Origin: Microcoleus sp. CSU_2_2
GTDB lineage: Bacteria > Cyanobacteriota > Cyanobacteriia > Cyanobacteriales > Microcoleaceae
DNA: 43,016 nt
Direction of reading: 5' to 3'
Assembly: GCA_012035135.1 (NCBI GenBank)
Contig: JAAUPI010000014.1
Location: 1 to 43,016, forward strand
In this document: piece after piece, positions 14,032 to 19,717 of the stretch
Layout of the letters: the number at the start of each line of letters is the position of its first letter
How positions within the stretch are numbered: the stretch's first letter is position 1
Translations under genes and position numbers: made by a program
Notes under the pieces: generated by a model
Seen by the model: only the letters and a program-made list of their open reading frames with translations
Told to the model about the DNA's origin: nothing
Databases searched by the model: none

Positions 14032-15966
14032 TCATGGATTTCTACCACATAGCCTGGATAAAAGATTCAACAACTCAGGAGCGGTGAAAGGTTTTGCTAA
14101 AAACGCTTGTGCGCCTTCATTCATTGTTTTGCTCACAGACTCATTGGTTGCCAATCCACTCATAGTAACGATCTGGACTTGAGAATTGAGTTTACGGAGA
14201 GTCCGAATAGTAGTAACTGAATCTAAAGAAGGCATCATCATGTCAAGCAATATGACCTTGATTTCATGCTTATGTTCGGCATACAGAGCGATCGCCTCAA
14301 TTCCATCGTTAGCAGTCATTGCTTTGTAGCCATGCGCTTCTAGAGTTGCCTGGGTAATCTCTTGTATTGGGACTTCATCATCGACCACCAAAATTAATTC
14401 GCCTTCTCCCATCTGAGGTTCAACATCGACAACAGTTTCAGCTTCACTCGCGTCCGTTGCAGGTAGATAAACTTTGAATTGCGAGCCTTTACCAACTTCA
14501 CTGTAAACGTTGATAAACCCATGATGACTTTTCACAATCCCGATCGCGGTTGCTAATCCTAACCCTGTCCCCTTCCCAATTTCTTTGGTAGTGAAAAAGG
14601 GATCGAAGATGCGATCGAGAATCTCTGGCTGCATCCCCATGCCTGTATCGGCAATCGCCACCACCACATAGGAACCAACTTGGGCATCCAAGTGCATCCG
14701 AGCATAATTTTCATCGATCGCTATATTTTCGGCGACGATCGACAGTTGGCCACCATTGGGCATGGCATCGCGGGCATTGACACAGAGGTTCATAAAAACT
14801 TGATGTAACAGTGTAGCATCGGCCGCAATTAGCTTTAAATTTTGGGGTAGATCCGTAGAAAGTTCAATATTTTTGGGGAATACTTGTTGGATAACTTTTT
14901 GGATTTCCAAAAGTAAATGACTCACCTGAGTGTTGGTGGGCTTGCTCTCAATACCGCTAGTAAAAGAGAGAATTTGCTTCACCAAATCAGTCCCCCGATA
15001 AGCACTTTCATTCAGAATTTGCAATAATCGGCGAGCTTGTTCATCCAGATTGGGGGCTTGCAGGGGAAGCAGTTGCGCGATTCCGATAATCGGAGTCAAG
15101 ACGTTGTTCAGATCGTGGGCAATCCCACTTGCTAATGTACCCAAACTTTCCAGACGTTCGGTACGACGCAGGGCTGCTTCTATCAATTTGCGATTGGTGA
15201 TATCTTCAGCAATGCCAACAACTCGGTAAGGAATTCCTGTAAGATCTTTAATAGGAAAGCCACGATCGCGAATCCACCGAATTGAACCATCAGGACGCAT
15301 AATTCGATACTCCTCGTCATAGTTGCCCAGCAACGACTGCTCAAAAAACTTAGTTTGAATACGTTGCCGATCCTCTGGAACGATCGCCTCTATCCATTCC
15401 ATAAAATTGGTATACAAACTTTCGCTAGAACGTCCCCAAATGCGATTGTAAGCAGGACTAACATACAGTATCTGAAGTCTTGTGGGGTCAGACATCCAGA
15501 AAACACTTTCAGTAATATTCTCTGCCAATTGCCGAAAGCGTTCTTCACTTTCCCGCAAGGCTTGTTCTGCATAGACACGTTTCTGCCGTTCCTGTGCCTC
15601 CCGTAATTCCCGTTCCACTGCCGGCACCAAACGGGCAAGGTTATCCTTAAGCAAGTAGTCATGGGCACCGGCTTTCATAGCAGCAACAGCAACTTCTTCA
15701 CCGATCGTACCAGAGACAATAATAAAAGGTAAATCTGGCTGATGATTTTGCAGCAATTGCAAAGCTTCTGGTGCACTGAACCTAGGCAAGGTGTAATCAG
15801 CAATGACAATATCCCACGATTGGCGATCTAAAGCCGCTTTCATATCAGACGCAGTTTCCACCCGCAAATAGTCAAGTGCATAACCACCTCGACGCAGTTC
15901 CCTTAGAAGTAGAAGCATATCGTCTTCGGAATCCTCGACTATTAGAAGACGTAAGTGTGCGTTCAT
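14032..15966 (-). CDS. hybrid sensor kinase/response regulator (REC-PAS-HisKA-HATPase-REC)
   Basis: 644 residues. Domain order: receiver (about 5-120, phospho-acceptor D57, conserved K107); PAS (about 143-260, ending in the PAC motif GIAEDITNRK); dimerisation domain with H284 in GIAHDLNN; HATPase with N397 (CVNARDAMP), the G1 box ADTGMGM and the G2 box GKGTGLGLA; second receiver (about 524-640, D575, K625). All phosphotransfer residues are present, so a full internal phosphorelay is possible. There is no membrane segment, so the protein is cytoplasmic. It follows the Rcp1-like regulator gene on the same strand after about 250 bp and is probably the last gene of the light-sensing operon, taking input from the upstream kinase or regulator (inference). 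Confidence 0.9.
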   Translation of the reverse strand: MNAHLRLLIVEDSEDDMLLLLRELRRGGYALDYLRVETASDMKAALDRQSWDIVIADYTLPRFSAPEALQLLQNHQPDLPFIIVSGTIGEEVAVAAMKAGAHDYLLKDNLARLVPAVERELREAQERQKRVYAEQALRESEERFRQLAENITESVFWMSDPTRLQILYVSPAYNRIWGRSSESLYTNFMEWIEAIVPEDRQRIQTKFFEQSLLGNYDEEYRIMRPDGSIRWIRDRGFPIKDLTGIPYRVVGIAEDITNRKLIEAALRRTERLESLGTLASGIAHDLNNVLTPIIGIAQLLPLQAPNLDEQARRLLQILNESAYRGTDLVKQILSFTSGIESKPTNTQVSHLLLEIQKVIQQVFPKNIELSTDLPQNLKLIAADATLLHQVFMNLCVNARDAMPNGGQLSIVAENIAIDENYARMHLDAQVGSYVVVAIADTGMGMQPEILDRIFDPFFTTKEIGKGTGLGLATAIGIVKSHHGFINVYSEVGKGSQFKVYLPATDASEAETVVDVEPQMGEGELILVVDDEVPIQEITQATLEAHGYKAMTANDGIEAIALYAEHKHEIKVILLDMMMPSLDSVTTIRTLRKLNSQVQIVTMSGLATNESVSKTMNEGAQAFLAKPFTAPELLNLLSRLCGRNP

Positions 15967-16215
15967 TATTTAATACCTTCGTGACGACTCCCAGCCCTAA
16001 CTCGCGGACGAGTACTGGAAAAGTGTTTTGTGGAATGAGTCATATTCGATCGCGCCTTATGGCGGTGTCACAATTTGTGTACTTAAGAAATATATTGAGC
16101 AGCAAGACACCCCAGAAGATAGTCCATCTGCGGGGCATCGAACCCCAGAAGAGGACGCGCTTACATCCCGTCACTCAACGGATTACCGTTAGAGTGCGGG
16201 GATTTCGCTTAGAAG

Positions 16216-16665
16216 CTAAACAGGCGGAGGTTCATTCATCAACAGCCAGTACATTCCTAATTGCCGAATGGCTTCAGAAAACTGGACGAAATCTACAGGT
16301 TTGCGGATGTAACTATTGCATCCCAAACTGTAACTATTAATGACATCCAATTCCTCGTTGGAAGTCGTCAAGACGACCACGGGCAAAAATCTCGTGCGTT
16401 GATCTTCCCGTAAGCGACGCAAGACTTCAAGACCATCAACTCGTGGCAGTTTCAAATCCAGCAGGATCACAGAGGGTTTGTTAGTGATATCTCGCCCCGC
16501 ATACATACCCGTGCCAAATAGGTAATCTAGTGCTTCAACTCCATCATGAGCCACAACAATTTCGTTGCCAATGTGATGACGCTTGAGGGCACGGATCGCC
16601 AAGGCCTCATCGTCAGGATTATCTTCTACCAAAAGAATAACCTTGTTATTTACTTTTTCCTTCAT
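16216..16665 (-). CDS. single-domain response regulator, Rcp1-like
   Basis: A 149-residue receiver with the extended loop typical of phytochrome-partner Rcp1 regulators (HDGVEALDYLFGTGMYAGRD). Phospho-acceptor D70 (VILLDLKLPRVDG), the acidic pocket EDNPDD at 15-19, the threonine switch near T101 and K122 (RKP) are intact. It has no output domain, so it probably relays phosphate. In related operons the gene directly follows a phytochrome-type kinase; here the kinase gene (18269-19717) is on the same strand but an IscB element lies between them. The start is the ATG following GGGGAAGACAG. Confidence 0.9.
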   Translation of the reverse strand: MKEKVNNKVILLVEDNPDDEALAIRALKRHHIGNEIVVAHDGVEALDYLFGTGMYAGRDITNKPSVILLDLKLPRVDGLEVLRRLREDQRTRFLPVVVLTTSNEELDVINSYSLGCNSYIRKPVDFVQFSEAIRQLGMYWLLMNEPPPV

Positions 16666-16687
16666 CTGTCTTCCCCGCGAGTGACTC

Positions 16688-16714
16688 CCGCCATAACTGT
16701 ACTCAGTTTGGCGG
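16688..16714 (-). mobile_element. right-end hairpin of the IscB element
   Basis: On the minus strand CCGCC-A-AACTG-AGTA-CAGTT-AT-GGCGG forms an imperfect hairpin 24 bp after the iscB stop. Subterminal hairpins are the transposase recognition sites in IS200/IS605-type elements; a matching hairpin of different sequence lies at the left end (18232-18264). The exact element tip, between 16666 and 16687, is not resolved. Confidence 0.5.
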
Positions 16715-16737
16715 TGAGAGGAAACGGGGGGCAGGAG

Positions 16738-18021
16738 CTATGACGCATAGGAATAACCATCCTTTTTGTGAATAATTGAACAATATCTGTGACTGATTCC
16801 CTGAACCAGTCCGTCTTTGGCTGAAATGTTAAAGCTACCACTAGCACGGGTAACAATTCGCCCGACATACTCACCGACTTTTTTGCCCCTAGTAACGACA
16901 GCTTTAACAAGATCCCCAGTCTGAAAACCAAAGTGGAACTTAGTTCTAGAACAGTGGCGAATCGGAAAACCGAATTTATCGGTGCGGCACGATTGCCTCG
17001 TACCGTGACCGTTGGCACAAATCAACAAAGGCTTAACTCCTTTAATATTTAGAATTGGCGTGGATATTCCTACACAAGCTGCGTCTAGCCAGTGAGATTT
17101 TTCTAGGTTTTGTTGGCTGCGGTTGAATTTTGTTAGACCTCCTGAACCTATTTCCACGGGTAGTCCAGTTTCTTTTAAAACATAGAGCAATGCAAATCTA
17201 GTTGCATTAACTGCTGCTGCATCTGCCAATGGTCTTTTTGCTTGTTTCAAGATTTTTTCTAACCTTGACTGGTCTTTTTTGAGGAATTCTTTAAGAGCCT
17301 TAGTTCCTTTCTTTTTGTTACATTTTTCGCAACTTAAAGTCAGATTTGTAATTGAGTTAGAGCCTCCTTTTGCTCGGGGGTAAATATGTTCTATCTGAAG
17401 TGGAACATCCTTTACGCCACAATAAGCGCATTGTCTATTCCATTTTTCGAGCAAGTATTCTCTAGTTTCATAACCCGCAAGTGTACCTTGTTGGTATTCC
17501 TTACCTTGAAGATCTGGATTGCGCATTAGTTGCAGATCGAAGCGTACTAATTCCTGGCTAATTGCTGCAATTGGTGCGAATTTGCGTAGTTTCTCGACCC
17601 AAGCTTTAATATTCCCAATCCGACTTTGTAGACTTGGCGCTAGCCATCCTAACGGTCTAGTTCTGTTTAAGAATCTTGGTGGGCGATAACGTGTTTTACG
17701 ATTTCTTCTACTTCTGCGAAGTTGCCTTCTTGACGTTAAAGAATCTCGAATTGCCAAACCTCTATGCTTTAATTCGGCTGCAAATACGACCTCTCCTGTT
17801 GAATCGTTGACCAGTGCAATTCCCGTAAATTTTGCACCAGGGTCAATTTTTAATCTTAAAGGTGAGATCGGGGAATCAGGACGTGATTCTTTGAGAATCA
17901 AAGTGAACGGGAAACGCCTAAAAACTGCTGCCTTTTTGTTTCTTAACAATTGCCTCGCTTGGGCTGGATAAATTGGGCTTAACGGTCTTTTTTCGGTGTC
18001 AATTAATAGAACTTTGCACAT
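16738..18021 (-). CDS. iscB: RNA-guided nuclease IscB (OMEGA system, Cas9 ancestor family)
   Basis: 427 residues, the usual size for IscB. N-terminal PLMP-type domain (LLIDTEKRPLSPIYPAQARQLL), split RuvC with D60 (LKIDPGAKFTGIAL), E157 (AISQELVRF) and H310/D313 (HWLDAA), an arginine-rich bridge helix (about 98-120), and an HNH domain with CAYC and CEKC zinc pairs and catalytic H212 (IEHIYPRAKGG). All catalytic residues are present, so RNA-guided DNA cleavage is expected. The start is ATG 18021, with a strong AAAGGAGG site 6 bp before it; an upstream ATG at 18057 is less likely. There is no tnpA transposase in the window, so the element is non-autonomous. It sits between a sensor kinase and its probable response regulator, in the same orientation. 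Confidence 0.93.
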   Translation of the reverse strand: MCKVLLIDTEKRPLSPIYPAQARQLLRNKKAAVFRRFPFTLILKESRPDSPISPLRLKIDPGAKFTGIALVNDSTGEVVFAAELKHRGLAIRDSLTSRRQLRRSRRNRKTRYRPPRFLNRTRPLGWLAPSLQSRIGNIKAWVEKLRKFAPIAAISQELVRFDLQLMRNPDLQGKEYQQGTLAGYETREYLLEKWNRQCAYCGVKDVPLQIEHIYPRAKGGSNSITNLTLSCEKCNKKKGTKALKEFLKKDQSRLEKILKQAKRPLADAAAVNATRFALLYVLKETGLPVEIGSGGLTKFNRSQQNLEKSHWLDAACVGISTPILNIKGVKPLLICANGHGTRQSCRTDKFGFPIRHCSRTKFHFGFQTGDLVKAVVTRGKKVGEYVGRIVTRASGSFNISAKDGLVQGISHRYCSIIHKKDGYSYAS

Positions 18022-18035
18022 AAAGTGCCTCCTTT

Positions 18036-18264
18036 CGGGTAATGTTAGCTTCGTCAATGTTTAAGGTCGGTAACTATCCACGCACGACACTGGTTTAACC
18101 CTTTAAGCCTGTTTAATCGTTGGGTTCTAGAGCAAGGGACTAGCTTCGCATCCCCTGGTAGGTCTTTAACACTTGCCTTAAACGTAGTGATTTAACACTT
18201 AGACTGGTAAACTAGAGCTTCTTTAAAAGCCCCCACCATATTGCTCTTAGCAATTGGTGGTGGG
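18036..18264 (-). ncRNA. probable omegaRNA of the IscB element
   Basis: IscB guide RNAs lie directly 5' of the gene, and this 229-nt stretch is the only sequence between the kinase stop and iscB. It is rich in secondary structure: a left-end hairpin CCCACC...ATTGCT-AAG-AGCAAT...GGTGGG (18264-18232), a GGGGA...TCCCT pair around GATGCGAAGCTAG, and AACCC...GGGTT near the 3' side. The guide segment should be the bases 5' of the left-end hairpin, that is, the last codons of the kinase gene around 18265-18290. The ends are estimated. Confidence 0.6.
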
Positions 18265-18268
18265 TTGT

Positions 18269-19717
18269 TTACTTCCTCACATCCTCTGTCGCTAGGGTGA
18301 AATAAAATGTCGCACCCTCTTCCAAACACCCTTGGGCCCACACTCGTCCCCCATGACGATGCACAATTCGCTGCACAGTAGCAAGTCCAATGCCATTGCC
18401 CGGAAATTCGCTGACGCTGTGCAATCGCTGAAAAGGGGAAAATAACTTGTTAACATAGGTCATATCAAAACCTACACCATTATCACGCACAAAGTAAGTT
18501 GGAACATGGTTTCCCTCTTCCTCCATCGCATCAATCTCGGACAAAATTGCGCCCAACTCAATTTTTGCTTGAGGTTTTTTAACCGTAAATTTCCAGGCAT
18601 TATTCAGCAAGTTATCTAAAACCACTTGCAGTAAACGGCTGTCTCCTTGGGCGACCAAACCAGGCTGGATTTGAAACTCCACCTGCCGTTCCGGGTGAGC
18701 TAGTTGTAGTTCCGTGCAGATATGATCCGCTAATCGGCTCAGATCGACGGATTCTCTACGCATCTCGCTTCTAATCACCCGTGATAGCGTTAGAAGATCG
18801 TCGATCAACTGTCCCATACGTTGGGTAGCAGCACGAATCCGTCGCAAATAATCATGGCCCGTTGCATCCAATTGATCCATACAATCTTCTAGCAACGCCT
18901 GACTGAAGCCATCAATACTTCGTAGGGGAGCACGTAAATCGTGAGAAACCGAATAGCTAAAGGTTTCCAGTTCCTTATTAACCGCTTTCAGTTCAATAAT
19001 GGCTTGCTGCAATCCTTGATTGAGTTCTTGAGCACGTTGTTCGGCTTGCTGGCGTTCAATAATTTCAGCTTGTAGTTGTGCCAAAAGTTCAGCGTGTTGG
19101 AGGGCTACTCCTAAATGATTGGCAATTTGAGTAACAAACTCAATCTCTGTTTCCTCCCATTGTCGTGGCGCGCGACATTGATGAATACAAAGTAGTCCCC
19201 AGAGATGGCTACCCTGCAATAGAGGAACAGCTAAATTTGCCCTGACTTGAAATCTGGCTAAAACATCGATATGGCAGTCGCTGAGTCCTGCGTTATAGAT
19301 GTCTGCAACAGCCTGTACTCGACCCTGTTGATAATGAATTGCAAATCGATCGCCGAAGCAGTGATCGTGGATTTTCTCGGACATGGCTGAAGGAAAATCT
19401 CGATCGACATCCTCCGACACAAGTTCTCCATCATTCCAATTAGAATCAGGATAGAAACGAAACATTCCCACTCGATCTGCTGCCAGAAGTTGGCGAACTT
19501 CGGTGGCGGTAGAGTGAAAAATTGTTTCTAGATCCAGGGGGCTTCGCAGTCTGGTAATCGCGTCGAATAATGCTTTCTGCCGCTCCAATTGGAAATTTGC
19601 TTGACTGATTTGCTGTTCGAGGGGTTTGATTTCGTCAGTTACGATCTGTTGAAGAGATTCAAATACTGTTTCATCTTGACAGATACTGCGTAATTTTGCC
19701 GATAGGTCTGGGGACAT
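18269..19717 (-). CDS. GAF-domain sensor histidine kinase, candidate DXCF-type cyanobacteriochrome
   Basis: 482 residues. A phytochrome-like GAF domain (about 55-215) is followed by a coiled coil (215-250), a HisKA domain with H259 (SVSHDLRAPLRS) and an HATPase (N369 region, DNGVGFD, GNGIGLA). The GAF domain carries both cysteines used by two-cysteine cyanobacteriochromes: C120 in D-H-C-F and C148 in DCHI, followed by FQVRANLAVP and LWGLLCIHQC. This suggests bilin binding and light sensing in the blue-green range, although similar GAF domains that bind no chromophore exist. There is no membrane segment. It heads a minus-strand set with the Rcp1-like regulator and the hybrid kinase. The final residues sit at the insertion point of the IscB element, but the C-terminus looks complete. 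Confidence 0.85.
   Translation of the reverse strand: MSPDLSAKLRSICQDETVFESLQQIVTDEIKPLEQQISQANFQLERQKALFDAITRLRSPLDLETIFHSTATEVRQLLAADRVGMFRFYPDSNWNDGELVSEDVDRDFPSAMSEKIHDHCFGDRFAIHYQQGRVQAVADIYNAGLSDCHIDVLARFQVRANLAVPLLQGSHLWGLLCIHQCRAPRQWEETEIEFVTQIANHLGVALQHAELLAQLQAEIIERQQAEQRAQELNQGLQQAIIELKAVNKELETFSYSVSHDLRAPLRSIDGFSQALLEDCMDQLDATGHDYLRRIRAATQRMGQLIDDLLTLSRVIRSEMRRESVDLSRLADHICTELQLAHPERQVEFQIQPGLVAQGDSRLLQVVLDNLLNNAWKFTVKKPQAKIELGAILSEIDAMEEEGNHVPTYFVRDNGVGFDMTYVNKLFSPFQRLHSVSEFPGNGIGLATVQRIVHRHGGRVWAQGCLEEGATFYFTLATEDVRK

What the first reader, a model, noticed from the sequence alone, without database searches (positions are those of the whole stretch)
16666..18268. IscB element inserted inside a light-signalling operon
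An intact IscB (D60, E157, H212, H310/D313 all present) sits exactly between a phytochrome-like kinase and its probable Rcp1-like regulator, in the same orientation. Such genes are normally adjacent, so the element splits the module without breaking either reading frame. IscB may now depend on the operon promoter, which would tie nuclease expression to light signalling, or it may separate kinase from regulator transcription.
Basis: partly seen in the sequence, partly recalled or inferred. Interest (0 to 1): 0.7.

Follow-up and report, generated by a model that had tools for sequence, protein, structure and literature searches.

The report
Jumping gene docked at start codon
An RNA-guided mobile element sits exactly where one bacterial gene's stop signal overlaps the next gene's start signal; its left end restores the lost stop and its right end leaves the start intact, and related elements also sit directly in front of genes far more often than chance.

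Summary
An intact IscB element (omega RNA plus iscB, window 16666-18272, minus strand) lies between a GAF histidine kinase and a CheY/Rcp-type regulator. In 11 of 13 orthologous loci, none with the element, the two genes overlap as ATGA (kinase stop TGA, regulator start ATG); the element sits exactly before that ATGA. Its left end, G|TAA, replaces A|TGA, so the kinase protein is unchanged letter for letter; its right end leaves the regulator's ATG intact behind a GGGGA motif.

This is part of a pattern. Of 87 distinct cyanobacterial ATGA-flanked HEARO/IscB insertions, 63 sit directly before a start-like ORF (flanking ATGA: 307 of 3260); GTGA-flanked ones do not (3 of 19). A later check set gave 7 of 12. 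On plasmids from three phyla, 8 of 14 ATGA-flanked IscBs precede a CDS annotated from that ATG. GTAA left ends favour stop/start overlaps (5 of 14 versus 2 of 73), but the small check set (1 of 5 versus 1 of 7) did not confirm this.

Most likely these elements dock at start codons and are transcribed with the host gene. Light control of iscB is unshown. Three primary papers were not available, so prior report cannot be excluded.

The parts
16666..18272 (-). whole IscB element, 1607 bp, no target duplication seen
   Evidence: left end = first base of the HEARO model, right end = base before ATGA; both agree with the element-free loci and with other copies
18039..18272 (-). omega RNA scaffold (HEARO)
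   Evidence: RF02033 138.5 bits, model 1-211 complete
18269..18272 (-). left-end tetranucleotide GTAA; its TAA serves as the kinase stop codon
   Evidence: sequence; kinase protein identical with and without the element
18273..18288 (-). predicted 16-nt omega RNA guide CAGAGGATGTGAGGAA, the 3' end of the kinase gene, holding the native GAGGAA before the regulator start
   Evidence: sequence; guide position by analogy with IscB (17-bp guide-target heteroduplex, PMC9640706, passages)
16738..18021 (-). iscB, 427 aa, RuvC and HNH residues present
16666..16737 (-). right-end hairpin and linker
   Evidence: folded; same architecture in L048 and in part of the L200 series
16672..16676 (-). GGGGA, Shine-Dalgarno-like, 6 nt before the regulator ATG; its Gs are predicted paired in the right-end hairpin
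   Evidence: sequence; pairing
16662..16665 (-). ATGA: predicted TAM, and regulator start codon plus first base of codon 2
   Evidence: NTGA TAM reported for DtIsrB in PMC9581776 (passages)
18269..19717 (-). GAF-HisKA-HATPase histidine kinase, 482 aa
16216..16665 (-). single-domain response regulator, 149 aa
   Evidence: Response_reg PF00072; PDB matches include RcpB and RCP1, though not as the best ones
14032..15966 (-). hybrid kinase that follows in the operon
   Evidence: a relative of it follows the regulator in the 13 loci
15989..16105 (+). remnant of a Y1 transposase C-terminus in the next junction
   Evidence: PF01797 28.7 bits, one stop in the stretch

Best explanation
This is an IscB (OMEGA) transposon that inserted directly before ATGA, here the 4-nt overlap of the kinase stop and the regulator start. 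SHOWN: the position; the element-free state in relatives; the left end G|TAA restoring the kinase stop with no protein change; the intact regulator ATG behind a purine-rich motif brought by the element; and that elements of this type sit before ATGA start codons far more often than flanking ATGA does. INFERRED: ATGA is also the TAM of the nuclease. The host transcript runs through the element, so the omega RNA (guide = the sequence just 5' of the start codon) and iscB are transcribed with the host gene. The RNP then cuts any allele that has lost the element, so it is kept or copied back. The ends (stop-like left end in some; SD-like right end in most long ones; in the betaproteobacterial plasmids seen, an iscB stop that overlaps the host ATG) keep the insertion close to neutral, at the price of separating kinase and regulator translation.
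For: Element-free site: 11 of 13 orthologous loci are ATGA overlaps. Kinase identical with and without the element, 482 aa. Second own element L048 lies directly before the glutathione synthase ATG; 19 of 19 same-genus loci examined lack it there (26 other genomes had a match). Survey: 63 of 87 ATGA insertions start-like versus 307 of 3260 flanking ATGA (p 6e-43); outside other long ORFs 56 of 78 versus 177 of 815; four cut-offs agree. Check set: 7 of 12 (p 4e-5 against the same background). GTGA insertions 3 of 19. GTAA left end 5 of 14 overlaps versus 2 of 73 (p 9e-4), all five upstream C-termini unchanged; a sixth case on a Deinococcus plasmid. SD core before ATGA in 38 of 45 long elements versus 7.0% background. 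Annotated plasmid starts 8 of 14. Nine named host genes match their family models from model position 1-4.
Against: GTCA left ends add 4-8 residues to an upstream frame in six survey loci and 17 in L338. Short non-coding elements sit at starts as often (36 of 46 decided) but rarely carry an SD core (2 of 47), so the SD is not needed for the habit; the window's own GGGGA is not an SD core by that rule. In the five right ends folded the SD-like motif is wholly or partly paired, so it may exist for transposition and may be masked. The guide of the window differs from the element-free sites of the eight relatives compared at 5-7 of 16 positions, so homing is untested. No expression, cleavage or transposition data.
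Confidence: 0.66

Rival explanations
1. Survivorship only: the transposase and nuclease need ATGA, insertions inside genes are purged, and what remains looks like start-codon targeting; the ends have no adaptive role.
For: Only ATGA is shared by the sites; there is no clear wider motif. Only 9 of 87 ATGA sites lie inside another long ORF. The SD-like motif is a hairpin arm.
Against: Against ATGA outside other long ORFs the excess remains (56 of 78 versus 177 of 815). Insertion between a promoter and its gene should, I would expect, be worse than elsewhere between genes, yet it dominates. The GTAA left end is concentrated at stop/start overlaps in the survey.
Confidence: 0.3
2. One reading: the insertion ties IscB expression to light signalling or uncouples kinase from regulator as a regulatory change.
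For: Same strand, no promoter-like or terminator-like site on the sense strand inside the element; the GAF domain has the Cys-His pair.
Against: The same placement is seen at glutathione synthase, lysyl-tRNA synthetase, L18, trigger factor, aroE and other genes unrelated to light. No data on expression.
Confidence: 0.12
3. The element has been taken over by the host as a regulator of the downstream operon.
For: Low dN/dS of iscB.
Against: Catalytic residues are kept; the low dN/dS is against elements at other sites, so it fits a mobile family; none of the 13 orthologous loci holds the element.
Confidence: 0.04

Closest known systems
IscB / OMEGA elements with HEARO omega RNA (RF02033, NF040563)
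   Same: protein family, complete scaffold RNA, element layout, NTGA-type motif on the 3' side as reported for DtIsrB (PMC9581776, passages)
   Different: in the passages and listings I saw there is no description of docking at start codons, of a left end that rebuilds a stop codon, or of a right end that supplies an SD-like motif for the host gene; the primary HEARO, ISC and OMEGA papers could not be read
IS200/IS605-type insertion
   Same: small ends with a hairpin, one fixed flanking tetranucleotide, no duplication seen
   Different: no transposase gene in this element; the partner transposase was not identified (10 Y1_Tnp matches in the genome)
IStrons (PMC4227781, start of the abstract in a search listing)
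   Same: a mobile element with a way of making its insertion harmless
   Different: IStrons splice out of RNA; here the suggestion is that the ends fit into the translation signals
Cyanobacteriochrome-type kinase and Rcp-type regulator
   Same: GAF-HisKA-HATPase kinase followed by a single-domain regulator
   Different: light sensing not tested

Membership tests
IscB (OMEGA nuclease) | guided_IscB protein model above cut-off | tested here: met
   442.5 bits against 175
IscB (OMEGA nuclease) | RuvC and HNH catalytic residues | tested here: met
   D60, E157, H212, H310, D313 present (roles of the residues recalled)
IscB (OMEGA nuclease) | omega RNA directly upstream | tested here: met
   RF02033 complete, 138.5 bits
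IscB (OMEGA nuclease) | RNA-guided DNA cleavage | not testable with these tools
   needs biochemistry
IS200/IS605-type transposon | precise insertion next to a fixed tetranucleotide without duplication | tested here: met
   element-free loci for kinase/regulator and gshB
IS200/IS605-type transposon | own Y1 transposase | tested here: not met
   besides iscB the only ORF of at least 80 aa in the element is a 118-aa one overlapping iscB in another frame, and no Y1_Tnp match falls in the element; mobilisation in trans is assumed
Start-codon docking | excess of insertions directly before start-like ORFs | tested here: met
   63 of 87 against 307 of 3260; check set 7 of 12
Start-codon docking | left end rebuilds the upstream stop codon | tested here: inconclusive
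   true for the window and five other loci; enriched for GTAA ends in the survey, not in the small check set
Start-codon docking | host gene expressed through the element | not testable with these tools
   needs RNA-seq or reporters
Cyanobacteriochrome kinase | GAF domain with chromophore cysteine | tested here: inconclusive
   GAF 84.5 bits, Cys148-His149 present; binding not tested

The most novel reading that the evidence does not exclude
Start-codon docking is a general strategy of RNA-guided IscB/HEARO transposons. The recognition motif doubles as the host start codon, so the element always points the way the host gene is read and has its guide RNA transcribed from the host's promoter. 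The element's ends have evolved to fit the host's translation signals (stop codon at the left; ribosome-binding site, or an overlapping iscB stop, at the right), which lets it spread into operons and in front of essential genes at little cost.
Probability: 0.4. Interest if true: 0.8.

Novelty: new variant of a known kind. Interest (0 to 1): 0.62.

Why it matters
IscB is thought to be the ancestor of Cas9, and how such elements live in genomes without harming the host is, as far as I know, little studied. If the motif they recognise is also the host start codon, it would explain why the motif is NTGA, how the guide RNA gets transcribed, and how dozens of copies (up to 42 HEARO matches per genome) coexist with essential genes. 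It gives direct tests: insertion mapping, transcript reads across the element, and translation of the downstream gene.

Tried and rejected
Tried without result: a general right-end regex missed most families and was replaced by alignment ends plus motifs. Some families (for example L252-L259) gave no clear right end and were left out. A search for a wider target motif found only ATGA. The 1.56-kb insert at the same junction in L110 looked like a second IscB insertion but is a D-Ala-D-Ala carboxypeptidase-like gene (name recalled). Domestication was rejected because none of the orthologous loci holds the element. Ten literature searches listed nothing that I recognised on start-codon docking of IscB; I saw listings and, for four papers (PMC9581776, PMC9755519, PMC13180657, PMC9640706), passages only. 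The primary HEARO, ISC and OMEGA papers are not held. From memory, the HEARO paper reports insertion next to ATGA or GTGA; whether it mentions start codons I could not check.

Sample limits. HEARO loci: I copied 141 of the places listed (the list itself is cut off) and fetched the first 80, so the sample leans to high scores. IscB loci: 74 of the 80 were used (L263, L267, L271, L274, L277 and L278 left out as cut short or remote). Own genome: 13 of 14 matches were used (the one cut by a contig end was left out). Of these 167, 35 had no right-end candidate, 9 were dropped by hand as doubtful, 12 were duplicates, and 5 more lacked a left end. Right ends were looked for as ATGA or GTGA only, so other sites (such as GTGG in L315) are not counted. 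Check set: 18 loci (3 duplicates left out, 5 without an assigned right end, 10 read) and the first 12 plasmid loci (2 left out as duplicates, 10 read); ends were set by eye with typed anchors, so it is not a blind test. Plasmids: 18 of 81 records with a match were fetched, chosen by me. The 20 host proteins were chosen by me, because they looked recognisable.

Full report
What is there. On the minus strand the window carries a histidine kinase (18269-19717), an IscB element (16666-18272), a 149-aa response regulator (16216-16665) and a hybrid kinase (14032-15966). Against the five relatives compared dN is 0.09-0.14 and dS 1.3-2.0, which points to purifying selection. The own genome has 14 HEARO matches, 8 over the family cut-off.

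The site without the element. One search listed no close full-length relative of the kinase in the 28 same-genus genomes (best near-full-length match 41%), but a DNA search of 291 genomes drawn from the order found twelve loci at 71-76% identity. These and one partial locus were read. In 11 of 13 the kinase ends in a TGA that overlaps the regulator's ATG as ATGA, with no element. One (L100) has a gap of about 110 bp, and one (L110) carries an unrelated gene between the two; neither has a HEARO.

How the ends fit. Removing the element leaves AGG AAA TGA; with it the sequence reads AGG AAG TAA. The kinase is the same 482 residues either way. The regulator keeps its ATG. The native purine-rich GAGGAA before it now lies 1.6 kb upstream, as part of the predicted guide, and the element ends in GGGGAAGACAG, an SD-like GGGGA six bases before the ATG. 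In the RNA fold the Gs of this motif are paired with the 5' arm of the right-end hairpin, so it may be masked.

A second case in the same genome. L048 carries a full element whose right end is followed directly by ATGAAATTTGC, the start of glutathione synthase (TIGR01380 positions 1-309 matched from residue 1). The gene was found in 26 of 28 other same-genus genomes. I examined 19 of these 26 loci: all 19 lack the element, and most but not all have a similar leader before the ATG (L297 clearly differs). Of the seven own sites counted, six are ATGA: five start-like and one undecided at a contig end; the seventh is GTGA and not start-like.

The survey. I collected 167 HEARO or IscB loci, found the right end for 123, and kept 111 distinct sites, 106 with both ends. 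The counted sites are cyanobacterial. The right end was taken from alignment ends and end motifs without looking at what follows. A site counts as start-like if at least 60 codons are open downstream and fewer than 60 upstream in the rejoined sequence. For ATGA sites this holds in 63 of 87; for all other decided ATGA in the same flanks in 307 of 3260 (p 6e-43). Leaving out sites inside other long ORFs it is 56 of 78 against 177 of 815 (p 7e-19). Other cut-offs give the same picture. GTGA sites give 3 of 19, against a background of 8.2% (p 0.2). Of the 63, 3 have another in-frame ATG upstream. The window itself scores 59 open codons upstream, just under the limit; its start is supported by the relatives.

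A check set. Ten chromosomal loci and ten plasmid loci were read afterwards with the same rule but with ends set by eye. ATGA sites with both ends: 7 of 12 start-like (p 4e-5 against the survey background). GTGA sites: of seven, L314 is start-like (its frame runs through a repeated right end), L310 has a long open frame but no left end was found, and five are not. One site is GTGG (L315), with a long open frame.

Which genes. Ten ORFs at right ends, chosen because they looked recognisable, were compared with NCBIfam: gshB, argG, mnmA, lysS, tig, chlB (cut by the contig end), ribosomal L18, ndhF3 and aroE were named, nine of ten; the match begins at residue 1-6 except in tig (residue 12). A further ten were compared with Pfam, nine with a match. 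Two of the twenty (L210, L228) have no left end and are not among the 63. Several of these genes are usually essential and single-copy (recalled).

Stop codons. Among the 87 ATGA sites the left end is GTCA in 71, GTAA in 14 and other in 2. GTAA ends are found at stop/start overlaps in 5 of 14, other ends in 2 of 73 (p 9e-4). In all five the upstream protein is unchanged (K, K, R, Q, L as last residue with and without the element). In the six survey loci with a GTCA end in a long upstream frame, that frame gains 4-8 residues. A sixth GTAA case is a Deinococcus plasmid with parA-IscB-parB, where ParA's annotated stop lies in the element and its end is unchanged; its left end was set by eye, and its omega RNA does not reach the Rfam cut-off.

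Ribosome-binding motifs. An SD core (GGAG, GAGG or AGGA, 4-12 nt before the site) is found in 38 of 45 long elements at ATGA, 5 of 15 at GTGA, 2 of 47 short elements at ATGA, and in 7.0% of background stretches; of 66 start-like sites, 25 right ends and 10 native leaders have one. The window's own GGGGA is not counted by this rule. Short elements dock as often without it, so it is at most an extra.

Annotated plasmids. Of 18 plasmid loci fetched (of 81 records with a match), 14 have ATGA at the right end, and in 8 of these a CDS is annotated from that ATG (L338, L339, L342, L343, L346, L350, L351, L353): Cyanobacteriota, Deinococcota and Pseudomonadota. Three have GTGA and none has a CDS there; one (L355) is undetermined. 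Two are not independent of the survey: L342 resembles L224, and L349 is the same record as L229. In all four betaproteobacterial loci fetched iscB runs to the last base of the element and its stop codon is TG plus the A of the target ATGA; in three of them a host CDS is annotated from that ATG.

Reading. The flanking motif is known as a TAM of this type: NTGA for DtIsrB, with cleavage on TTGA and ATGA (PMC9581776, passages). The guide of IscB is the 5' segment of the omega RNA (PMC9640706, passages), here the end of the kinase gene. Since the motif lies at the 3' side, an element at a start codon always points in the direction of the host gene. A host transcript would then hold omega RNA, iscB and the host gene in one piece; I infer this, helped only by the absence of promoter-like and terminator-like consensus sites on the sense strand inside the element. 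That the nuclease then protects the insertion by cutting element-free alleles is taken from work on OMEGA elements (recalled).

Limits. The counted sample is cyanobacterial and its HEARO part leans to high scores; start-like is an ORF rule, not annotation, except on the plasmids; selection against other insertions can explain part of the excess; no expression or activity data exist here; and three primary papers could not be read. That start-codon docking is unreported is not claimed; I only did not find it in the ten searches listed under Tried and rejected.

Noticed in passing
window 15989-16105 (+): Remnant of a Y1 transposase C-terminus in the regulator/hybrid-kinase junction, a second IS200/605-like scar in the same operon; in three relatives (L101, L103, L104) the two matches lie only about 12 bp apart.
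   Followed up: partly
L346, L347, L350, L351 (betaproteobacterial plasmids): The iscB stop codon is completed by the A of the target ATGA, so iscB overlaps the host start by one base. L346 holds a second IscB that I did not analyse.
   Followed up: partly
L343 2256-3878 (Deinococcus plasmid), L342 and L224 (cyanobacteria): IscB inserted directly before parB in different phyla, with annotated ParA upstream in L342 and L343.
   Followed up: partly
L110 2266-3805: A D-Ala-D-Ala carboxypeptidase-like gene lies at the same kinase/regulator junction in another genome (name recalled).
   Followed up: no
kinase orthologs: Close relatives of the kinase were found in other families of the order but not listed in the same genus, which suggests transfer or many losses.
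   Followed up: no
L316: A GTGA-flanked IscB lies directly before a short (35-codon) RelE-like reading frame (name recalled).
   Followed up: no
L297: In this relative the leader before glutathione synthase differs from the others and holds an inverted-repeat-like stretch.
   Followed up: no
G000:C253, L053: Short HEARO match whose tail does not resemble the other right ends; no right end found.
   Followed up: no
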